37,010 bases of DNA from Mycobacterium sp. NS-7484 (GTDB lineage: Bacteria; Actinomycetota; Actinomycetes; Mycobacteriales; Mycobacteriaceae), in NCBI RefSeq assembly GCF_001953975.1, contig NZ_MBEJ01000011.1, forward strand, positions 1 through 37,010, written 5' to 3'. This document shows, piece by piece, positions 5,430 to 12,383 of this stretch. Below the pieces are notes generated by a model. It saw only the letters and a list, made by a program, of their open reading frames with translations, was not told the origin of the DNA and searched no databases. Position numbers and translations under genes: made by a program. How positions within the stretch are numbered: the first letter of the stretch is position 1; each line of letters starts with the position of its first letter.

Positions 5430-6509
5430 TCAGGGCGCGAGATGCGCGACCTGTGGCAGCACCTTGGTCCCCACCAACTCGAAGCTGCGGCGGTAGATGT
5501 CCGGGTGGTCGGTGTACTCATGGCCGAAGGAGATCAGGGATCCGAAGCCGCCGACGGCGTTGTAGAGCGCCTCGATCTTGGCCGCGACGGTATCCGGCGA
5601 TCCCACGAAGTGGAAGTTGTCCACCATCCACTCGGCGGACAGCTCGTCGAGAGTGATCGTGCCGCCGGTCATCATCTCGCCGATGCCGAGCTTGATGAAG
5701 GTCGGGATGTTGTAGTTGCCCCACAGATCACCCATGGCGCCGTTGAGATAAGCCTCCCGCGCCTGCTCATCGGTATCGGCCACGAACACGTCACGACAGA
5801 TCCGCCAGTCGGCACGGTCGGGGTTGTGGCCTGCGGCTTGCGCGGCCTCGGCGTAGGTGGCCCAGTGCTCCTTCAGCACCGACGTGTGTACCTGCTGACT
5901 CATCGGGAAATAGCCGTTGCGGCCGGCAACCGCCAGGGTCGGCGACTTGGCTTGCATACCCGTCATGATCACCGGGATGCGCTCCTGCTTCGGCACCAGA
6001 TGCGGGCCGTGAATGTCGTCGTCATAGGCCGGCATATCGACGGTCCAGTACTTGCCCTCGATCCGGAACGGGCCCTTCTTGGTCCAGATGCTCTCGATGA
6101 TCTCGAGCGCCTCGGTCATCATCTCCGGGTTCTGCTTACCGGTGTTGAAAAGCTGCGCGTCACTAGGGAAAGCGCCGGGTGCGAAGCCCGCGATGTAGCG
6201 GCCTTCGGTCATGTGATCCAGCCACATGATCCGGTGCGCCAACGCGATCGGGTTGTGGTAAGCCAGCAAGTGCGCGGCGGCGCCGAGCTTGATCTGCGAG
6301 GTGATCTGTGAGGCAGCTGCGATCATCGCGTCCGGCGCCGGGCTTGGTTCACCGCCGAGGGTGTAGTGCTCGGCGAAGTAAGCCTCGGACCAGTTGTACT
6401 CGTCCGCCCACTTGGTGAGCGTCAGGTCCCAGTCGATCACCTGTTTGGCGGTGCGCTTGCCATGCGAGTAACCCCGCGAGTATGGGATGTTGAAGATGCC
6501 GAACTTCAT
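5430..6509 (-). CDS. LLM-class flavin-dependent monooxygenase
   Basis: A 359-residue luciferase-like (bacterial luciferase/F420 superfamily) enzyme. The start MKFGIFNIPYSRGY, the segment AYFAEHYTLGG near residue 45, HLLAYHNPIALAHRIMWLDHMTEGR near 85-110, GFAPGAFPSDAQLF and the late FVGSPDTVAAKIEAL are all family hallmarks. Such enzymes use reduced FMN, or sometimes F420, and O2 to oxygenate small organic molecules. The flavin reductase encoded nearby argues for free FMNH2 as co-substrate. The ATG follows GAAAGGA at 7 nt. The promoter (6629-6658) and a palindromic operator (6596-6613) lie upstream, implying control by the divergent TetR repressor. Limonene, alkanal, amine and chelator monooxygenases belong to this class, so the substrate cannot be read from sequence. 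Confidence 0.9.
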   Translation of the reverse strand: MKFGIFNIPYSRGYSHGKRTAKQVIDWDLTLTKWADEYNWSEAYFAEHYTLGGEPSPAPDAMIAAASQITSQIKLGAAAHLLAYHNPIALAHRIMWLDHMTEGRYIAGFAPGAFPSDAQLFNTGKQNPEMMTEALEIIESIWTKKGPFRIEGKYWTVDMPAYDDDIHGPHLVPKQERIPVIMTGMQAKSPTLAVAGRNGYFPMSQQVHTSVLKEHWATYAEAAQAAGHNPDRADWRICRDVFVADTDEQAREAYLNGAMGDLWGNYNIPTFIKLGIGEMMTGGTITLDELSAEWMVDNFHFVGSPDTVAAKIEALYNAVGGFGSLISFGHEYTDHPDIYRRSFELVGTKVLPQVAHLAP

Positions 6510-6595
6510 CTGAGTGTCCTTTCATCAAGGTGGTGGAAGCACCGGGAAGCCTTGCCGCCATGGCGATCTGCCCGTTGGCGATGGGGCGCTGAAAT

Positions 6596-6613
6596 TTCGT
6601 ACATTTGTAGAAA
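6596..6613. promoter_or_regulatory. Operator A (palindrome) before the monooxygenase gene
   Basis: TTCGTACATTTGTAGAAA matches the consensus TTTCTACATATGTAGAAA at 15 of 18 positions. It begins a few bases downstream of the predicted transcription start (about 6622, minus strand), where a bound repressor would block initiation or elongation. Confidence 0.7.
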
Positions 6614-6628
6614 TTGGTGGTAGCGGCC

Positions 6629-6658
6629 AAACTAGCGGCGTCACCGGAGAGGTGTCAA
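6629..6658 (-). promoter_or_regulatory. Monooxygenase promoter (TTGACA - 18 bp - TAGTTT)
   Basis: On the minus strand a consensus -35 TTGACA (6658-6653) and a -10 TAGTTT (6634-6629) are 18 bp apart, pointing toward the monooxygenase gene. Operator A follows directly. The 351-bp divergent region 6510-6860 holds no gene. Confidence 0.6.
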
Positions 6659-6741
6659 CAGAATCCGGAAAAGTTTTTCCTGCAGAGACATGGCAACGGG
6701 GACAGGGCAATTCGCTCGCAGACCGGCGGATTTCCGGGCCA

Positions 6742-6770
6742 TTGACGAGTCTGGGGCGCTGACCTGCACT
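6742..6770 (+). promoter_or_regulatory. Possible tetR promoter (TTGACG - 17 bp - TGCACT)
   Basis: TTGACG (6742-6747) is followed after 17 bp by TGCACT (6765-6770), a weak -10. It overlaps the start of operator B, consistent with autorepression. The -10 match is poor, so this call is tentative. Confidence 0.4.
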
Positions 6771-6786
6771 TCTACATCCGTAGAAT
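6769..6786. promoter_or_regulatory. Operator B (palindrome) before the tetR gene
   Basis: CTTCTACATCCGTAGAAT matches the 18-bp consensus at 14 positions. The half-sites TTCTACAT and GTAGAA are intact; the differences are at the centre and the ends. It is 75 nt before the repressor's start codon. Confidence 0.7.
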
Positions 6787-6860
6787 GCTGCACGTCGCTT
6801 CCCCGGCCGCCCTGCGAGCTTGCGGTACCCTCTGCAGAAGTCCACAGTCAGGAGTCGAGG

Positions 6861-7505
6861 GTGAAGAGATCGGGCAGCCGCTCAGAGGCGACCGCCATGG
6901 CCCTCGTCGAGGCGGCGCTGCAGATCATCCGGGAGTCCGGGGTCAAGAGCGTCACCCATCGCAAGGTCTGCAGCTACGCCGGAGTAGCCCTCGGCAGCAG
7001 CACCTACCACTACGAGAACCTCGACAACCTCATTCTCGACGCATTCGCACATTACGTGGAGCGTGTCTCGGTCGGGTACGAGAAGCACTTCGAGGGCGCA
7101 ACTTCGGACGACGACCTGGTCGATGCGATCCTCACGCTGGTCAACGCGATGACGACCGATATGGGCAACGCGATCCTGGAATGGGAGCTACTGGCCGAGG
7201 CCGGCCGCCAGGACGCATACCGAGAGCTCGGCCATAAGTGGTCGAGCCGGGCCCGCGGGGCTGTCGAGCGTTATGTGTCGCCGAAGGTCGCCCACATGCT
7301 GGAGACGATCTGGGACGGATCCACCGTCCACCGGGTACTCAACGGCACCAGCTTGGACGACGCCGGCCTGCGCGAACTCCTCAAAGCCACAATCGAATTG
7401 GACCCCACCCGCGGCTATCCCCGTCCGCAGGAGCCGGCCAAACCAGCGAAGAAGGTCGCCAAGAAAGTGGCGAAGAAGGCGACCACCAGGCGCAAGGCTT
7501 CGTAG
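6861..7505 (+). CDS. TetR-family regulator with lysine-rich C-terminal tail
   Basis: A 214-residue repressor-type protein. The TetR helix-turn-helix domain is at about 5-50 (EAALQIIRESGVKSVTHRKV, then SSTYHYENLDNLI). An all-helical ligand domain follows to about 185. The last 23 residues are a basic tail with repeated AKK units (PAKPAKKVAKKVAKKATTRRK), like mycobacterial histone-like tails and unusual for TetR proteins. I chose GTG 6861 because AGGAG ends 6 nt upstream and the DNA-binding domain starts at once; upstream in-frame starts would run through operator B. It is divergent from the monooxygenase gene. Palindromic sites upstream of this and neighbouring genes suggest that it represses itself and the cluster. 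The inducer is unknown. Confidence 0.88.
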   Translation: MKRSGSRSEATAMALVEAALQIIRESGVKSVTHRKVCSYAGVALGSSTYHYENLDNLILDAFAHYVERVSVGYEKHFEGATSDDDLVDAILTLVNAMTTDMGNAILEWELLAEAGRQDAYRELGHKWSSRARGAVERYVSPKVAHMLETIWDGSTVHRVLNGTSLDDAGLRELLKATIELDPTRGYPRPQEPAKPAKKVAKKVAKKATTRRKAS

Positions 7506-7518
7506 CCGCCTCACCTCG

Positions 7519-7836
7519 TCATTGGTTGGCGACGAACACCTTGCGGATCTTCTCGTGCACGGTCCAGGTCATCTTCTCGCCCGGCTGACAGACAAGCACG
7601 TCGCCCGGCCCGATCTCGACGACCTTGCCTGAGCCGGCTTCCACGGTGGCGCGCCCCTGCAGGATGACGACGGTCTCCTGGCCCTGGTATTCGCGATGCA
7701 CGCCCGGTTCGGCCTCCCACACTCCGTGCTTCTGGCCTCCGTCGGCATACAGCACCGCCGAACGTACCGGGGCGGTGCTGGCGGGCCGGTGCGCCTCGGT
7801 CAACTCCACGGTCAGCGGGTCATAACGGTCGATCAC
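7519..7836 (-). CDS. Cupin (DUF861/EutQ-like) protein
   Basis: A 105-residue single-domain cupin. The pattern GVWEAEPGVHREYQGQETVVILQGRATV, then VVEIGPGDVLVCQPGEKMTWTVHEKIRKVFVANQ, is typical of Cupin_3 (DUF861), the fold of (S)-ureidoglycine aminohydrolase and the ethanolamine protein EutQ. It retains one His and several Glu residues that could bind a metal. I start it at GTG 7836, which has AAGGA 7 nt upstream; the longer frame is low-quality sequence. It lies 40 nt downstream of the flavin reductase on the same strand, so the two are probably one operon. It may be an enzyme or a small-molecule binding protein of the cluster pathway. Confidence 0.8.
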   Translation of the reverse strand: MIDRYDPLTVELTEAHRPASTAPVRSAVLYADGGQKHGVWEAEPGVHREYQGQETVVILQGRATVEAGSGKVVEIGPGDVLVCQPGEKMTWTVHEKIRKVFVANQ

Positions 7837-7876
7837 AATTGCATCCTTGCTCGTTGTAGGGACACTGCAGATCCGG

Positions 7877-8377
7877 CTAACCGAGTTGCCGGAACTTCGA
7901 TCGGAAGAACACCAGCGGTTCCGACTGCTCGTCGCCGGTACGCATGCTGAGCACATGGGCGGTGACGATCACGTGATCGCCACCGTCATGGGTGGCAGCC
8001 ACCTCGGCCTCGACCCACGCTTGGCAGCCCTCGATAAGCGGGACACCGGTTTCCGGCCCTGGCGACCACCGCATGTCAGCGAATTTGTCGGTTCCCGATT
8101 TGGCGAAGGTCAGCGCAACACCCTGCTGATCGGCGGCCGTCACGTTGACCGCGAAGCGCCCGGTGGCCGAAATCAGGGGCCAGCTAGTCGACTTCCGGTC
8201 CACCGACAGCAGGATCATCGGTGGGTCGAGCGACAGGGACATGAAGGACTGAACCGTCAACCCCACCGGTATTCCGTCGGACAGGCCACTGACCACCACC
8301 ACCCCGGTCGGGAAGTTGCCCATCACCGTGCGGTAATCAGCACTCTGCTTTGCCATTACGGGCATCTCGCACCCCAT
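7877..8377 (-). CDS. Flavin reductase-like protein (HpaC/ActVB family)
   Basis: About 166 residues (160 if ATG 8356 is the start). YRTVMGNFPTGVVVVSG, GLTVQSFMSLSLDPPMILLSVDRKSTSWPLI, FAVNVTAADQQGVALTFA, then DKFADMRWSPGPETGVPLIEGCQAWVEAEV and GDHVIVTAHVLSM are the diagnostic blocks of the flavin reductase-like, FMN-binding split-barrel family. These enzymes use NAD(P)H to make free FMNH2 for a partner monooxygenase, here most plausibly the LLM enzyme encoded 1.4 kb away. The start is uncertain, since ATG 8377 has only a weak GAAGA upstream. It is first gene of the operon with the cupin and divergent from the RibB-like gene, with operator C in between. Confidence 0.88.
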   Translation of the reverse strand: MGCEMPVMAKQSADYRTVMGNFPTGVVVVSGLSDGIPVGLTVQSFMSLSLDPPMILLSVDRKSTSWPLISATGRFAVNVTAADQQGVALTFAKSGTDKFADMRWSPGPETGVPLIEGCQAWVEAEVAATHDGGDHVIVTAHVLSMRTGDEQSEPLVFFRSKFRQLG

Positions 8378-8391
8378 TCTTCGAAGAACTC

Positions 8392-8419
8392 TTCACATTG
8401 CCGAGTTTCTACATATGAT
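8392..8419 (+). promoter_or_regulatory. RibB-like gene promoter (TTCACA - 16 bp - TATGAT)
   Basis: TTCACA (8392-8397) and a near-consensus TATGAT (8414-8419) are 16 bp apart, directed at the RibB-like gene. Operator C overlaps the -10, so bound repressor would exclude polymerase. On the minus strand a TTGACG (8446-8441) could serve the flavin reductase, but no clear -10 follows. Confidence 0.55.
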
Positions 8420-8423
8420 GAAA
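8406..8423. promoter_or_regulatory. Operator C (palindrome) between flavin reductase and RibB-like genes
   Basis: TTTCTACATATGATGAAA matches the consensus at 16 of 18 positions, and the left half is perfect. It lies in the 101-bp divergent intergenic space and overlaps the predicted -10 of the rightward promoter, so one site could control both directions. Confidence 0.75.
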
Positions 8424-8478
8424 CTACTACTTGCGGGTGGCGTCAACCCGTAACGAACGCTAAACCGGAAGGCAGACC

Positions 8479-9135
8479 ATGGACACGAAAATGCTTGCTA
8501 CAGAACTGGATGAGCCGACGCCGGTGTCCGAACTGGGCGCCGAACGGATCCATCGGGCATGCCACGCGATGGCCGCAGGCGAGCCGGTGGTGCTCTCTGA
8601 CGGTGCGGAATCGTCGTTGGCCCTGCTGAGCTCGGCGGCCACTCCGGTCGGGTTGTCCCGGTTGGTCAAGTCGGGTTCGGGCCTGCTCTTCGTGGCCGTG
8701 GAACGCGAACGGTTGCGCCAGTTGCGCATTCCCCCGATGGCCGGCGACCACCGCTCGCCGAACAGCCGCTTTCATGTCGCGGTGGACGCCGCAGTCGGCA
8801 TCGGGACCGGAATCTCGGCAATCGACCGGGCCCGCACCGTTCGCCTACTCAGCGACGCCGATTGCGGAACAGATGATTTCGTCCGCCCCGGCCATGTGAT
8901 CCCGGTGGCCGCCGACATGACTCCCCCGCAGGCACCTGGCACCCCCGAACTGGCTTTCGCGCTGGCCCGCCTCGCCACGGATGGAGTTCCCGCCGCTGCA
9001 TACTGCGCGCTGACATCCGAAAGGGATCCACGGTCGGTGGCCGGGCCCGAGGAGGGCGCCGCGATCGCCCGGCAGAACGGGCTCGCCTTCATCCTGCGTG
9101 AGGATGTGCTTGCCGCGTTCTACCGGGCGCGATAG
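8479..9135 (+). CDS. RibB-like protein lacking catalytic residues
   Basis: A 218-residue protein with the fold signature of 3,4-dihydroxy-2-butanone-4-phosphate synthase (RibB): KSGSGLLFVAVERERLRQLRIPPM at about 64-87, VDAAVGIGTGISAIDRARTVRLLSD at about 102-126, and VRPGHVIPV at 135-143. The acidic catalytic loop of real RibB (pattern DxEDREDEGD after the VxLD strand) is replaced by SDGAESSLA at about 40-48. The metal-binding His of the GHTE motif is gone (PGTPE, 153-157). It is therefore unlikely to make the riboflavin precursor. ATG 8479 follows GGAAGG. The context suggests a flavin- or sugar-phosphate-related role in the cluster, or a new reaction. Confidence 0.85.
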   Translation: MDTKMLATELDEPTPVSELGAERIHRACHAMAAGEPVVLSDGAESSLALLSSAATPVGLSRLVKSGSGLLFVAVERERLRQLRIPPMAGDHRSPNSRFHVAVDAAVGIGTGISAIDRARTVRLLSDADCGTDDFVRPGHVIPVAADMTPPQAPGTPELAFALARLATDGVPAAAYCALTSERDPRSVAGPEEGAAIARQNGLAFILREDVLAAFYRAR

Positions 9136-9144
9136 TGCGGAACC

Positions 9145-10005
9145 TCAGTCGTTCGGGATCTTGAAGGGGCCCATGGCGCCGGCATCGACGACCATGGCGG
9201 TGCCGGTGACATAGCGGCTGACGTCGGAGGCCAGGTACAGCACCGCGTTGCTGATGTCCTCGGGCTGCACGAACGGGATCGGCAGCGCGTTCATCCCCTT
9301 CAGGGCGGGAATCGAATCTTCCTGCGTGGCATTCGGTTTGCCACCGGAAAACAGGGTGTTGTAGGCGTCGTTGTTGATCATCAAGGTGTCGACATTGGTC
9401 GGGTTGACCGAGTTGACCCGGATCCAGTGCGGTGCCAGCTCTCCGGCCAGGGTCCGCATCAGACCGTTGGCGCCGTGCTTGGAAGCGGCGTAGTGACCGA
9501 CGTTGAGTTCGGCCACCAGCCCCGAGATGGAACTAATGATGATGACCGAACCGCCTTGCCCCTGCTCGATCAGGTGCGGCACGGTCGCCTTGATGGTCTT
9601 CCAGACACCGGTCAGGTTCGTATCGAGCTGATCCTGAAACTGCTGCTCGGAGATCTCCCACATCGGCGCAATGTCATTGACGGTACCGGCGTTGGCAACC
9701 ACGACATCGAGCCGACCAAGCTCCTTGATTCCCTGGTCGACAAAGGTTTTCAGCGCAGCCAGATCGCGGACATCCACCTGTCCGGCCACGATGCGACGGC
9801 CGGTCTCCGACACCAGGCGCACCGTTTCGTCCAGATCGGCCGGCATGGACATGGGATAGGGCACGGTCTCGATCTGTTTACAGATGTCGACGGCCAAGAT
9901 GTCTGCACCCTGTCCAGCCAGCCGTACCGCGTGCGATCGGCCCTGGCCCCGGGCAGCTCCCGTCACCAGGGCGACTTTGCCGGTCAAATCCAGAGGGTTG
10001 CTCAT
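9145..10005 (-). CDS. Mycofactocin-type SDR family oxidoreductase
   Basis: A 286-residue short-chain dehydrogenase. It has the NAD motif TGAARGQG at 15-22, NAG near 100, the catalytic Ser region IIISSISG, and Tyr/Lys in HYAASKHG. The long insertion after the first Rossmann unit (AVDICKQIETVPYPMSMPADLDETVRLV, about 39-66), HPHW-type loops with VNPTNVDT, and the ending VDAGAMGPFK are typical of the mycofactocin-coupled SDR subfamily, which includes carveol dehydrogenases. Such enzymes hold NAD(H) tightly and pass electrons to the peptide cofactor mycofactocin. The likely job is alcohol oxidation in the cluster pathway. I start at ATG 10005 (GGAG four bases upstream); the longer frame would cross operator D. 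No mycofactocin genes are in the window. Confidence 0.9.
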   Translation of the reverse strand: MSNPLDLTGKVALVTGAARGQGRSHAVRLAGQGADILAVDICKQIETVPYPMSMPADLDETVRLVSETGRRIVAGQVDVRDLAALKTFVDQGIKELGRLDVVVANAGTVNDIAPMWEISEQQFQDQLDTNLTGVWKTIKATVPHLIEQGQGGSVIIISSISGLVAELNVGHYAASKHGANGLMRTLAGELAPHWIRVNSVNPTNVDTLMINNDAYNTLFSGGKPNATQEDSIPALKGMNALPIPFVQPEDISNAVLYLASDVSRYVTGTAMVVDAGAMGPFKIPND

Positions 10006-10033
10006 ATCGCTCCGTCCTGATTGGTTCTCAGTT

Positions 10034-10051
10034 TTTCCACATATGTAGGAA
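10034..10051. promoter_or_regulatory. Operator D (palindrome) before the mycofactocin-type SDR
   Basis: TTTCCACATATGTAGGAA matches the consensus at 16 of 18 positions. It starts about 2 nt downstream of the predicted transcription start (about 10053, minus strand), the same arrangement as operators A and E. Confidence 0.75.
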
Positions 10052-10059
10052 TTCAATGC

Positions 10060-10088
10060 ACCGTAGGGTGAGCTCGCCTCAATGTCAA
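10060..10088 (-). promoter_or_regulatory. SDR promoter (TTGACA - 17 bp - TACGGT)
   Basis: On the minus strand a perfect -35 TTGACA (10088-10083), a 17-bp spacer and a TACGGT -10 (10065-10060) precede the SDR gene. The 300-bp divergent region 10006-10305 holds this promoter, its rightward counterpart and two operators, but no gene. Confidence 0.7.
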
Positions 10089-10172
10089 CGACGGCCTGCG
10101 GCAGGGAAAGCTACTGAGTGACAACCACATTGGTCGCCTATCCGGCTGCCCGACTTCATGTCAGCCGATCCG

Positions 10173-10201
10173 TTGACAGCGCCGCGCCCGGAGGTTACTG
10201 T
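10173..10201 (+). promoter_or_regulatory. Promoter of the SDR2-permease operon (TTGACA - 17 bp - TACTGT)
   Basis: A perfect -35 TTGACA (10173-10178), a 17-bp spacer and TACTGT (10196-10201) predict a start near 10208, giving a leader of about 98 nt before the second SDR gene. Confidence 0.7.
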
Positions 10202-10215
10202 CACCCGGATCACAC

Positions 10216-10233
10216 TTTCAACAAATGTCCACA
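10216..10233. promoter_or_regulatory. Operator E (weaker palindrome) before SDR2-permease
   Basis: TTTCAACAAATGTCCACA matches the 18-bp consensus at 13 positions. Taken alone the match is modest. Its place 8 nt after the predicted start of a strong promoter repeats the layout of sites A and D, which raises its credibility. Confidence 0.5.
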
Positions 10234-10305
10234 TTCGGAGCCGCGGCACCTCGCGCAGGCCGGCAGATGGCACCTCGTGGACAACACGCAGACAAGGAAC
10301 AACGC

Positions 10306-11076
10306 ATGACGACTCCTCGACGCCTCGTCGAACGAATCGCATTGGTCACCGGCGGCAGCAATGGCCAGGGCGCTGCCCACACCCGCCGGTTGGCACAGGA
10401 AGGTGCCATCGTCTACTTCTCCGATGTGGATACCAAGTCCGGAGCCGCACTCGAGGCGACCCTGCGCGAAGAAGGCCTGGACGTGCACTTCCGCCAGCAG
10501 GACGTGACCAGCTTCCAGACCTGGCAGGACATCGTGTCCGAGATCGACGCGGACCACGGCCGCCTCGACATCCTGGTCAACAACGCCGGAGTCCTGGACC
10601 TCTACTCAGCCGACGACGCCACCGAGGAATCCTGGCAGCGCACCCTCGACATCAACACCAAGAGCATCTTCCTGGCCGTCAAGGCCGCCCTGCCCCTCCT
10701 TCGCAAGAGCAAATCCGCATCGGTGATCAACACCTCGAGCATCTTCGGACTGGTCGGGGCCGACGGATACCTGGCCTATGTCGCCTCCAAGGGAGCCGTC
10801 ACCACCATGACGAAGTCCCTCGCCGTCACCCACGGCAAGGAAGGCATCCGCTTCAACACCATTCACCCCGGCTACATCGACACCCCGATGCTGCGCACGG
10901 AGATCGCCGGACTGCCGGAGGGCTCCGAAGAAGCCATTCTGGCCTCAATCCCGTTGGGTCGCTTCGCCGGTGGCGAAGAGATTGCCCCCTCGATCGCGTT
11001 CCTGGCTTCCGATGACGCGTCCTACATCAGCGGTGCAGAACTGATCATCGACGGCGCGCACTTGGCCGGCCGCTGA
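10306..11076 (+). CDS. Classical SDR family oxidoreductase
   Basis: A 256-residue short-chain dehydrogenase/reductase. It has the dinucleotide motif TGGSNGQG at about 15-22, NNAG near 90, the catalytic Ser in INTSSIFG, and Tyr/Lys in YVASKGA. HPGYIDTPM follows, and the end is SGAELIIDGAHLAGR. It lacks the mycofactocin-type insertion, so it should exchange NAD(P)(H) freely. An Asp after the second strand (FSDVDTKSG) favours NAD over NADP. ATG 10306 has AAGGA 7 nt upstream. The longer frame from 10225 would start inside operator E and is rejected. It is followed after 50 nt by the permease, probably in one operon. It may carry out a second oxidation or a reduction in the same pathway. Confidence 0.88.
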   Translation: MTTPRRLVERIALVTGGSNGQGAAHTRRLAQEGAIVYFSDVDTKSGAALEATLREEGLDVHFRQQDVTSFQTWQDIVSEIDADHGRLDILVNNAGVLDLYSADDATEESWQRTLDINTKSIFLAVKAALPLLRKSKSASVINTSSIFGLVGADGYLAYVASKGAVTTMTKSLAVTHGKEGIRFNTIHPGYIDTPMLRTEIAGLPEGSEEAILASIPLGRFAGGEEIAPSIAFLASDDASYISGAELIIDGAHLAGR

Positions 11077-11126
11077 TCGAACTCGCCTGGCCCACACACT
11101 ATTCGGATACGAGAGGGTGATTCACC

Positions 11127-12383
11127 TTGGAACTCGTCGGACAGGTCATCGTCTGGATCATGATGGGCTTCATGGCGCTCGGGGCGGGCGCCTACCTGCT
11201 GCGCCCGGATTCCCCACTGGCGGGAGAGTTCCGGGACGGCATCTTCACCATCGGACAGATCTTCATCCCGGTGGCCGGCATGATGGGCATCATCCCGTTG
11301 CTGGTGCCCGCGATCGACAAGACCGTCGGCCCCATCTACGAATGGCTGCACTCGGATCCGGCGATCGCGGTCAGCACTTTCCTGCCCAGTGACCAGGGCG
11401 CGTACGCGCTGTCGTTGGAGGTCGCCAACAGCCACGCGGCGTGGATCCAGGCCTTCACGGTCAGCCTCACCTCAGGTGCGGTGATCGCGTTCTCCATCCC
11501 GGTCGGTTTGGCCATGCTGGACCGCAAGTATCACAAGTACATGGCATTGGGCACCATGTGCGGTCTGCTGGCGATCCCGGTTACCTCGCTCATCATGAGC
11601 TTGCTGCTGGTGCAGAGCGGAGTGCTGCTACGTGAGGGCATCGACACCTCGGGTCCCGGGACCAAGCCGTTCGACCTGTCCGTCGGCGAGGTGTTGTTCA
11701 ACCTCGCACCGCTCGTGATCATCATGGTCACCCTGGCGTTGGCCCTGAAGTTCTTCACCGATTTCATGGTCAAAGCGTTCCTGGTGTTCGGCAAGGCCAT
11801 CGTCGTGGTCACCACGATCTCGATGACGGCCAATGTGATCGAGTACTTCACCGGGGTATTCAGTACGGTGTTCGGGTCGTTCCCGCTGGCGCCGTTCATC
11901 GCCGATGCCGAGGACCAATTCCGCGCCCTTGAGGTGGTCGGCTACATCGGTGTGATGCTCGCCGGCGCGTTCCCGATGGTCTACGCCATCCGGACCGGGC
12001 TGGCCAAGCCGCTGCAGGCGATCGGTGACCGGTTCGGTGTCTCGGAGGCCGGTATCACCGGCTTCCTGGCCGGTGCGACGAACATCCTCGCGCTGTTCCG
12101 CGTGGTTCCGCTGATGCCGCCGCGAGACCGCGTGCTCACCATCGCCTTCTCGGTCTGCGCGGCCTTTGCCTTCGGCGACTACCTGGCGTTCACCGCGAAC
12201 TTCCAGCCGAACATGATCGTCCCGATGATCGTTGGCAAGCTGTGCGGTGGGGCTCTCGCCGTGGCCATCGCGGTCTGGCTGGCAGTGCCCTACCTGAACC
12301 GGTTCGAGCAGGACGAATCGGACGACCCGATCCTCGCCGATACGGCGACCGAACGCGCCGCGGTTCAGAACAACGTGTACTGA
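11127..12383 (+). CDS. EutH-like permease (ethanolamine transporter family)
   Basis: A 418-residue membrane protein with about ten helices. It matches the EutH (ethanolamine permease) family in overall order: an N-terminal IVWIMMGFMALGAGAYLL helix, VAGMMGIIPLLVPAID, the DQGAYALSLEVANS segment near residue 90, FSIPVGLAMLD, NLAPLVIIMVTLALALKFF, FGKAIVVVTTISMTANVIEYFTG and VMLAGAFPMVYAI. I use TTG 11127, with GAGAGGG upstream; this keeps the conserved first helix. No other ethanolamine gene (EutBC lyase, microcompartment shell) is present, so the substrate is probably another small polar or amine compound. The end overlaps the end of convergent dnaQ by 19 nt. Confidence 0.82.
   Translation: MELVGQVIVWIMMGFMALGAGAYLLRPDSPLAGEFRDGIFTIGQIFIPVAGMMGIIPLLVPAIDKTVGPIYEWLHSDPAIAVSTFLPSDQGAYALSLEVANSHAAWIQAFTVSLTSGAVIAFSIPVGLAMLDRKYHKYMALGTMCGLLAIPVTSLIMSLLLVQSGVLLREGIDTSGPGTKPFDLSVGEVLFNLAPLVIIMVTLALALKFFTDFMVKAFLVFGKAIVVVTTISMTANVIEYFTGVFSTVFGSFPLAPFIADAEDQFRALEVVGYIGVMLAGAFPMVYAIRTGLAKPLQAIGDRFGVSEAGITGFLAGATNILALFRVVPLMPPRDRVLTIAFSVCAAFAFGDYLAFTANFQPNMIVPMIVGKLCGGALAVAIAVWLAVPYLNRFEQDESDDPILADTATERAAVQNNVY

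What the first reader, a model, noticed from the sequence alone, without database searches (positions are those of the whole stretch)
5430..12383. Candidate undescribed catabolic system: EutH-like permease, LLM monooxygenase, RibB-like protein and mycofactocin-type SDR
Eight genes under one operator type combine a permease, a two-component flavin monooxygenase (enzyme and reductase), two different SDRs, a cupin and a flavin-pathway look-alike. I know of no characterised pathway with this set. A polar amine or amino alcohol fits the permease; a terpenoid-like alcohol would fit the carveol-dehydrogenase-type SDR plus LLM enzyme. Which is right is open.
Basis: partly seen in the sequence, partly recalled or inferred. 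Interest (0 to 1): 0.8.

Follow-up and report, generated by a model that had tools for sequence, protein, structure and literature searches.

The report
Amine-oxidising gene cassette with defunct RibB
A mycobacterium-type bacterium carries eight neighbouring genes, found together again in related species, that likely let it take up and oxidise a small amine or amino alcohol; one of them is a relative of a vitamin-B2-pathway enzyme that has lost its metal-binding residues and is predicted to have a new helper role beside flavin-dependent oxygenases.

Summary
In detail: eight intact genes (5430-12383) and five copies of one 16-bp palindrome. The whole block recurs in M. aurum and two unnamed relatives. 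The substrate question leans to the amine arm. In 21 of 23 loci read with this monooxygenase (55% identity or more) an amine- or amino-acid-type transporter lies nearby, of four kinds in turn (EutH, two APC types, PotD-like ABC). Some sibling blocks add an APH-type kinase plus a phospho-lyase-like enzyme, the chemistry of amino-alcohol breakdown. Ethanolamine has a separate locus (own permease, EutB, EutC) in this genome, so another amine is likelier. The monooxygenase resembles the type II Baeyer-Villiger enzyme 3,6-diketocamphane monooxygenase.

The most interesting part is the RibB-like protein. It keeps the DHBP-synthase fold but lost both metal ligands, yet is under purifying selection. 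Degenerate RibB genes lie within 10 kb of an LLM monooxygenase or a flavin reductase in 28 of 29 loci read, against 3 of 22 with intact RibB. One pairs with a different monooxygenase subfamily and reductase family. This points to a flavin-linked helper. It is not essential to the core: 12 of the 23 monooxygenase loci show one. Substrate, chemistry and RibB-like function are inferred; none was tested at the bench.

The parts
5430..6509 (-). LLM (luciferase-like) flavin monooxygenase, 359 aa
   Evidence: PF00296 124 bits; nearest solved structure 3,6-diketocamphane 1,6-monooxygenase 4uwm 197 bits, next 55 bits
6597..6612 (.). operator-like palindrome upstream of the LLM gene
   Evidence: 2 mismatches to TTCNACATNTGTNGAA; recurs in orthologous loci
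6770..6785 (.). operator-like palindrome upstream of the TetR gene
   Evidence: 1 mismatch
6861..7505 (+). TetR-type regulator (start 6861 GTG or 6897 ATG), predicted local repressor
   Evidence: PF17940 32.9 bits over cut-off 27.4; PF00440 16.3 below cut-off 24
7519..7836 (-). small cupin (EutQ-like Cupin_3)
   Evidence: PF05899 65 bits; GTG start at 7836
7877..8377 (-). flavin reductase, predicted FMNH2 supplier of the LLM enzyme
   Evidence: PF01613 154 bits; HsaB-like, below equivalog cut-off
8407..8422 (.). operator-like palindrome between flavin reductase and RibB-like genes
   Evidence: 1 mismatch on both strands
8479..9135 (+). RibB-like protein with DHBP-synthase fold, both metal ligands lost
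   Evidence: PF00926 118 bits; active-site comparison; AlphaFold2 pLDDT 92.3, Foldseek ranks 1-47 all DHBP synthases
9145..10005 (-). mycofactocin-type SDR dehydrogenase
   Evidence: TIGR03971 392 bits, cut-off 300; nearest solved chain annotated carveol dehydrogenase 5ej2; mftC present in the genome
10035..10050 (.). operator-like palindrome upstream of the mycofactocin-type SDR
   Evidence: 1 mismatch on both strands
10217..10232 (.). operator-like palindrome upstream of SDR2-EutH
   Evidence: 2-3 mismatches
10306..11076 (+). second, ordinary NAD(P)-type SDR dehydrogenase
   Evidence: PF13561 197 bits; SDR homologues near the LLM gene in sibling loci
11127..12383 (+). EutH-family permease, predicted amine or amino-alcohol importer (TTG start)
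   Evidence: PF04346 344 bits; NF011668 469 bits, cut-off 575

Best explanation
This block of eight conserved neighbouring genes likely encodes an inducible pathway that imports a small amine or amino alcohol and oxidises it with a two-component FMN monooxygenase, and its RibB-like protein, which has lost the metal ligands of DHBP synthase, is predicted to help with flavin supply or handling. Shown by sequence: the gene set, the shared palindrome, its conservation, the loss of catalytic residues and the link of such RibB relatives to flavin reductases and monooxygenases. Inferred, in order: the EutH-family permease imports the substrate; the TetR protein lets go of the palindromes when inducer is present; one or both SDRs oxidise a secondary alcohol group to a ketone (the mycofactocin-type SDR passing electrons to mycofactocin); the flavin reductase makes FMNH2; the LLM enzyme inserts oxygen next to the carbonyl in Baeyer-Villiger fashion, so that the product falls apart into an acid and a small amino fragment. 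The RibB-like protein would bind a flavin, a flavin precursor or the housekeeping RibBA, keeping the flavin pool available to the monooxygenase.
For: Whole block in M. aurum (L003), G199 (L015), G165 (L016). Of 23 loci read with an LLM of 55% identity or more, 21 have an amine- or amino-acid-type transporter within about 10 kb: EutH in 4, one APC type in 9, other APC types in 6, PotD-like binding protein in 2; misses L027 and L054. Kinase (PF01636) plus class III phospho-lyase-like enzyme sits in L019 and L022; L050 has both 6-8 kb away; L020 has the lyase part. That enzyme is nearest to solved phospho-lyases 5g4i (371 bits) and ethanolamine-phosphate phospho-lyase 6tor (339), next hit 169. 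A EutH of 52-54% identity lies near such a kinase and a 160-aa lyase-like ORF in G217 (L057). Ethanolamine has its own locus, TIGR00908 permease plus EutB plus EutC, on another contig. RibB-like: both metal ligands lost in 90 of the 120 listed homologues (256 found) while all 120 keep TGIS..DR and RPGH. LLM or flavin reductase within 10 kb in 28 of 29 loci with a degenerate RibB (LLM 21, reductase 22), against 3 of 22 with intact RibB. Genus: 8 of 9 genomes with a degenerate RibB at E 1e-28 are among the 17 of 297 with the LLM, hypergeometric 1.6e-10. dN/dS 0.22 and 0.33. L018 pairs a degenerate RibB with an NtaA/DmoA-type LLM and a PF03358 reductase. Published parallel: ipp cluster, 214-aa RibB-like ORF between the oxygenase and reductase genes, while purified IppA1 plus IppA2 with added FAD suffice in vitro (PMC12442392, Table 1 and passages).
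Against: No substrate, activity or expression data exist for this block. The transporter count has no control, and APC permeases are common. Only 12 of the 23 LLM loci show a RibB-like gene in the stretch read; 11 do not (L027, L046-L052, L054, L055, L059; some lie at contig ends, and the G014 contig end L046 probably belongs with L017, which has one), so it is not essential to the core. One degenerate RibB (L147) has neither LLM nor reductase within 10 kb. The nearest named relatives of LLM and SDR act on terpenoids. The RHA1 plasmid locus has SDR, LLM, reductase and RibB-like with no amine transporter among the annotated genes. The second EutH of this genome sits by FGGY-kinase-type genes, so EutH need not mean an amine. 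The 29 and 22 loci are not independent (orthologues, near-identical plasmid copies, mostly syntenic housekeeping RibBA), and the search profiles were built partly from these loci.
Confidence: 0.5

Rival explanations
1. A terpenoid or alicyclic alcohol pathway: the carveol-dehydrogenase-type SDR makes a cyclic ketone and the LLM enzyme, like diketocamphane or limonene monooxygenases, oxygenates it; EutH carries something else or a side product.
For: LLM nearest to 3,6-diketocamphane monooxygenase; SDR nearest to chains annotated carveol dehydrogenase; RHA1 and R. ruber plasmid loci combine LLM and mycofactocin SDR with no amine transporter among the annotated genes.
Against: In 21 of 23 loci an amine- or amino-acid-type transporter is nearby; kinase plus phospho-lyase in sibling loci; no epoxide hydrolase, P450 or lactone hydrolase among the eight genes.
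Confidence: 0.2
2. Oxidative N-dealkylation: the LLM enzyme hydroxylates the carbon next to nitrogen of a secondary or tertiary alkanolamine (for example a diethanolamine-like compound), giving an aldehyde and a primary amino alcohol that the separate ethanolamine or kinase/phospho-lyase loci finish; the SDRs handle the carbonyl fragment.
For: NtaA-type LLM enzymes N-dealkylate amines (recalled); the genome keeps an ethanolamine locus and an APH kinase plus lyase locus on C51.
Against: The window's LLM is far below the NtaA/DmoA cut-off (35 against 280 bits) and is nearest to the ketone-oxygenating diketocamphane enzyme.
Confidence: 0.2
3. The RibB-like protein has a new catalytic role on the pathway substrate (an isomerase or lyase on the oxygenated product), not a flavin role.
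For: Conserved motifs TGIS..DR and RPGH in 120 of 120 listed homologues; normal fold.
Against: Its partners include different LLM subfamilies and reductase families, hard to square with one substrate; in the ipp system the oxygenation works without it in vitro.
Confidence: 0.2
4. The RibB-like gene is a decaying duplicate of ribBA left near the monooxygenase by chance.
For: Catalytic residues lost; one R. opacus plasmid copy is broken into two frames; 11 of 23 LLM loci show none.
Against: dN/dS 0.22 and 0.33; invariant motifs across the listed family; 28 of 29 degenerate loci near an LLM or flavin reductase gene.
Confidence: 0.05

Closest known systems
RMM bacterial microcompartment loci of Rhodococcus and Mycobacterium (PMC4207490, passages read)
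   Same: Mycobacterial amino-alcohol logic: amino acid permease, short-chain dehydrogenase acting on amino-2-propanol, phosphotransferase and aminotransferase; kinase and aminotransferase-fold genes also join sibling blocks here.
   Different: RMM loci encode a microcompartment and an aldehyde dehydrogenase, and the passages seen list no monooxygenase; this block has no shell gene and relies on an LLM/flavin reductase pair. The genome has shell-domain genes elsewhere, on C18 and C27.
Plasmid clusters of R. opacus PD630 (pRoPD630_1 and _2)
   Same: TetR, RibB-like, flavin reductase, mycofactocin SDR, LLM, second SDR, cupin.
   Different: APC permease instead of EutH; adds a class III aminotransferase, more SDRs, a YdiJ-like FAD/Fe-S protein and an SSADH-type dehydrogenase. 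I found no function for it in print with my searches.
ipp cluster of Rhodococcus sp. D-6 (PMC12442392, Table 1 and passages)
   Same: A 214-aa RibB-like ORF between the oxygenase and reductase genes of a two-component flavin monooxygenase, induced with them.
   Different: The oxygenase is group D (acyl-CoA dehydrogenase fold) acting on 2-isopropylphenol; whether its RibB-like ORF keeps the active site could not be checked here.
3,6-diketocamphane monooxygenase (type II Baeyer-Villiger, 4uwm)
   Same: Nearest solved LLM enzyme, aligned over residues 9-354; FMNH2 from a separate reductase (PMC9864536, abstract only).
   Different: Camphor pathway of Pseudomonas; substrate here unknown.
Lumazine protein and rib genes downstream of lux in Photobacterium (PMC8272222, passages)
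   Same: A riboflavin-pathway enzyme paralogue without enzymatic activity recruited beside an LLM-family enzyme (luciferase).
   Different: Lumazine protein derives from riboflavin synthase; here the relative is DHBP synthase, in Actinobacteria, and no ligand is known.
Arabidopsis RIBA2 and RIBA3 (recalled, not read)
   Same: RibBA paralogues with one activity lost but kept by selection.
   Different: Plant plastid proteins, no link to a monooxygenase.
Eut ethanolamine utilisation
   Same: EutH-family permease; a EutQ-like cupin.
   Different: No EutB/EutC here; a complete ethanolamine locus lies on C67.

Membership tests
DHBP synthase (RibB) | PF00926 fold | tested here: met
   118 bits; Foldseek ranks 1-47 all DHBP synthases, TMq 0.68-0.81
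DHBP synthase (RibB) | DRENEGD loop with metal-binding and acid-base carboxylates (roles recalled) | tested here: not met
   Loop shortened; Arg absent, metal Glu read as Gly, Asp as Ser, second Glu kept; alignment around the gap is uncertain
DHBP synthase (RibB) | metal-binding His of GHTE and Glu of CEI (roles recalled) | tested here: not met
   Thr and Ala in the window
DHBP synthase (RibB) | makes DHBP and formate from ribulose 5-phosphate | not testable with these tools
   needs an enzyme assay
Type II Baeyer-Villiger / LLM monooxygenase | PF00296 TIM barrel, near diketocamphane enzymes | tested here: met
Type II Baeyer-Villiger / LLM monooxygenase | separate flavin reductase partner | tested here: met
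   PF01613 gene in the block and in many sibling loci, though not in all stretches read; pairing itself not tested
Type II Baeyer-Villiger / LLM monooxygenase | ketone to ester or lactone activity | not testable with these tools
   needs an assay
Mycofactocin-coupled SDR (TIGR03971) | curated score | tested here: met
   392 bits over 300
Mycofactocin-coupled SDR (TIGR03971) | mycofactocin biosynthesis in the same genome | tested here: met
   mftC 662 bits over 265; other mft genes not searched
EutH ethanolamine permease | PF04346 | tested here: met
   344 bits
EutH ethanolamine permease | NCBIfam EutH equivalog cut-off | tested here: not met
   NF011668 469 bits against 575
Eut ethanolamine pathway | EutB/EutC in the block | tested here: not met
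   the one EutB match of the genome is on C67 with its own permease
RMM microcompartment | BMC shell proteins in the locus | tested here: not met
   PF00936 hits only on C18 and C27
Amino-alcohol kinase/phospho-lyase route | APH kinase plus class III phospho-lyase in the locus | tested here: not met
   absent from the window block, present in siblings L019 and L022; own genome has a pair on C51
Terpenoid (limonene/camphor) cluster | terpenoid-specific partner genes or activity | tested here: inconclusive
   none among the eight genes by Pfam/NCBIfam; activity not testable

The most novel reading that the evidence does not exclude
Actinobacteria have turned DHBP synthase, a vitamin-B2 enzyme, into a non-catalytic flavin partner protein that serves two-component flavin monooxygenases in general, a second and independent case of what lumazine protein is to luciferase; in this block it serves a new amino-alcohol pathway in which an SDR makes an amino ketone and a type II Baeyer-Villiger monooxygenase cuts it.
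Probability: 0.35. Interest if true: 0.8.

Novelty: new variant of a known kind. Interest (0 to 1): 0.6.

Why it matters
Reduced flavin in two-component monooxygenases is costly and oxygen-sensitive, and how cells manage it is an open question. A conserved protein family, annotated as a riboflavin enzyme but lacking its active site, that keeps company with these systems would give a handle on that question and correct annotations in degradation clusters. The block also suggests a monooxygenase route for amine or amino-alcohol breakdown in mycobacteria and rhodococci beside the microcompartment and B12 routes, testable on a laboratory Rhodococcus strain.

Tried and rejected
Riboflavin catabolism (rca type, recalled): one paper search listed one gut-bacterial paper and no matching cluster. 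Pyrazine degradation: tpd paper seen in passages; different regulator, no match seen. Ethanolamine: rejected as main substrate because a full separate locus exists. NtaA-type membership of the window's LLM: rejected by score. Amino-2-propanol as substrate: possible, but the genome also has shell-domain genes, on C18 beside an aminotransferase-like and an APC-like gene, that may be an RMM locus. The profile search of 394 genomes of the class did not separate degenerate from intact RibB (366 of 394 hit) and served only to pick controls. The regulon search found no convincing operator outside the block: 26 strand matches against 15 for the reversed control pattern. The first RibB alignment had its reference RibBA on the wrong strand; it was replaced by L024. 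An earlier linkage count by loop motif was replaced; the Fisher tests belong to that earlier count and are not used.

How the linkage loci were chosen: the window; every degenerate match; for plasmids, the best place of each actinobacterial record shown (repeats of one place counted once; the older record of the PD630 plasmid, H2/H67, left out); two extra copies. L053, found through the LLM, was left out. L030, L031, L032 and L142 (alphaproteobacterial, intact RibB) were left out too; three of those four have an LLM within 10 kb. Seven further matches and 29, held as 3.6-kb stretches, are all intact. The rest of the matches, the records not listed, and second places in listed plasmids were not read. 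Degenerate copies in G004 (L117) and G251 (L053) fall below the threshold. Three further LLM matches of 55-56% (G212, G041:C274, G087 second copy) were not read.

Full report
What is there. The window is contig C11 of a 5.56-Mb, 142-contig genome; the one named relative found with the block is Mycobacterium aurum. Between 5430 and 12383 lie eight intact genes: LLM monooxygenase, TetR-type regulator, cupin, flavin reductase, RibB-like protein, mycofactocin-type SDR, second SDR and EutH-family permease. They point in both directions, so there are several transcription units. Five copies of one 16-bp palindrome stand at 6597, 6770, 8407, 10035 and 10217, in front of these units. The pattern gives 14 matches in the window against 2.94 on average in 100 shuffles, largest 10. 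Genome-wide the five matches with at most one mismatch are in this block. The palindromes recur at matching places in L003, L015 and L016 and, in varied form, in the APC-type sibling blocks. That the TetR protein binds them is inferred.

Conservation. The whole set is found in M. aurum (L003), G199 (L015; 92% nucleotide identity to L003 over the block, so probably close kin) and G165 (L016). L017 and L046 are two contig ends of G014 that probably hold one split block. In the genus, 17 of 297 genomes have an LLM match at E 1e-120 or better, and 12 of 297 a EutH match at 1e-60 or better.

Substrate class. I read 23 loci with an LLM of 55% identity or more. An amine- or amino-acid-type transporter lies within about 10 kb in 21: EutH in window, L003, L015, L016; an APC permease of one kind (75-84% identical to that of L021) in L021, L046, L047, L049, L050, L051, L052, L055, L056; other APC permeases in L020, L022, L025, L026, L053, L059; a PotD-like binding protein in L019 and L048, in L048 with ABC ATPase and two permease genes. 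The two misses are L027 and L054; in L054 the ORFs checked are Dak1, transaldolase-like, SDR and one without a family. No control for this count was run. In L019 and L022 the block holds an APH-type kinase and a class III enzyme whose nearest solved structures are phospho-lyases (5g4i 371 bits, ethanolamine-phosphate phospho-lyase 6tor 339 bits, next 169). L050 has both 6-8 kb away and L020 the second. In L057 a EutH of 52-54% identity lies near such a kinase. Kinase plus phospho-lyase is an amino-alcohol route (recalled; compare the RMM loci, PMC4207490, passages). The own genome has such a pair on C51, beside genes 75% (over 388 residues) and 86% identical to the FAD/Fe-S and SSADH-type genes of the R. 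opacus block. Ethanolamine has a separate locus with a TIGR00908 permease (527 bits, cut-off 381.75), EutB and EutC. So a different small amine or amino alcohol is likelier. Against: the second EutH of the genome lies by FGGY-kinase-type genes, so EutH alone proves nothing.

Chemistry. The LLM enzyme is by far nearest to 3,6-diketocamphane monooxygenase among solved structures (197 bits, next 55), an FMNH2-dependent Baeyer-Villiger enzyme supplied by free reductases (PMC9864536, abstract). The SDR passes the TIGR03971 cut-off and is nearest to chains annotated carveol dehydrogenase; mftC is present. Alcohol to ketone to ester is therefore the simplest inferred order. None of it is tested.

The RibB-like protein. 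It keeps the DHBP-synthase fold (AlphaFold2 mean pLDDT 92.3, pTM 0.88; Foldseek ranks 1-47 all DHBP synthases). Against an intact RibBA it has lost the Arg, metal-binding Glu and Asp of the DRENEGD loop, the metal-binding His of GHTE and the Glu of CEI; one loop Glu stays (residue roles recalled). Of the 120 homologues listed (256 found), 90 have lost both metal ligands and 6 keep both, yet all 120 keep TGIS..DR and RPGH. dN/dS against L015 and L016 is 0.22 and 0.33, so selection holds it.

Its company. Through RibB matches I classified 51 actinobacterial loci: 29 with at least one metal ligand lost, 22 intact. Among the 29, an LLM gene lies within 10 kb in 21 and a PF01613-type reductase in 22, one or the other in 28; the miss is L147. 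Among the 22 intact ones it is 3 (L085 and L128, extra copies, and L125). Cautions: orthologues and near-identical plasmid copies are included, the controls are mostly the syntenic housekeeping gene, and the profiles were built partly from these loci. In the genus, 9 genomes have a degenerate RibB at E 1e-28 or better, and 8 of the 9 are among the 17 LLM genomes (hypergeometric 1.6e-10); the ninth, G184, has a more distant LLM of 39%. Seen from the other side the tie is looser: 12 of the 23 LLM loci show a RibB-like gene in the stretch read, 11 do not. In L018 the partners are an NtaA/DmoA-type LLM and a PF03358 reductase, both of other families. In four alphaproteobacterial plasmids fetched by a RibB match, intact RibB lies near an LLM in three (L031, L032, L142; not L030). 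In print, the ipp cluster has a 214-aa RibB-like ORF between oxygenase and reductase genes, log2 fold change 4.46, while the purified pair works without it, with FAD added; in that study 3,735 genes rose, so induction is weak evidence (PMC12442392). A figure legend on R. ruber Chol-4 lists a DHBP synthase with an NADH-FMN oxidoreductase in a pathway of unknown substrate (PMC6498646). I found no paper that explains these RibB-like genes.

Reading. Because the partner monooxygenases and reductases change family while the RibB relative stays, a role in the flavin economy is likelier than one on the substrate. Lumazine protein, an inactive riboflavin-synthase paralogue serving luciferase, is the precedent (PMC8272222, passages). 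That the core can do without it fits a helper, and limits how much it can matter.

Verdict. Observation confirmed; interpretation partly supported, leaning to the amine arm. New variant of a known kind, with a RibB-like partner that deserves bench work.

Noticed in passing
L025 and L026 (R. opacus PD630 plasmids): The LLM/RibB-like/APC block is present twice, on two plasmids; in the L026 copy the RibB-like gene is broken into two frames.
   Followed up: partly
L003 3902-6886, L015 3478-6618: In M. aurum a bacterial NAD-glutamate-dehydrogenase-type gene (PF05088, PF21074) sits just before the LLM gene, and G199 has an ORF of like size at the same place; the window has nothing at that point.
   Followed up: no
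G000 contig C51 (L078): APH kinase, phospho-lyase-like enzyme, FAD/Fe-S dehydrogenase and SSADH-type gene together; the last two are 75% (over 388 residues) and 86% identical to genes of the R. opacus plasmid block.
   Followed up: partly
G000 contig C81 (L058): A second EutH lies beside FGGY-kinase, DAO/BFD and pyridine-nucleotide oxidoreductase genes, which suggests EutH proteins may not only carry ethanolamine.
   Followed up: no
L031, L032, L142: In Shinella, Sulfitobacter and Rhizobium etli plasmids an intact RibB or RibBA lies near an LLM gene, a possible flavin-supply arrangement from which the degenerate form may have come.
   Followed up: partly
L081 (R. jostii RHA1 pRHL3): Mycofactocin SDR, LLM, flavin reductase and an unannotated RibB-like gene that keeps the loop but lost the metal His, beside F420 biosynthesis genes.
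   Followed up: no
L147 (Rhodococcus sp. USK10 plasmid): A degenerate RibB without LLM or PF01613 reductase within 10 kb; the record is unannotated and its neighbours were not identified.
   Followed up: no
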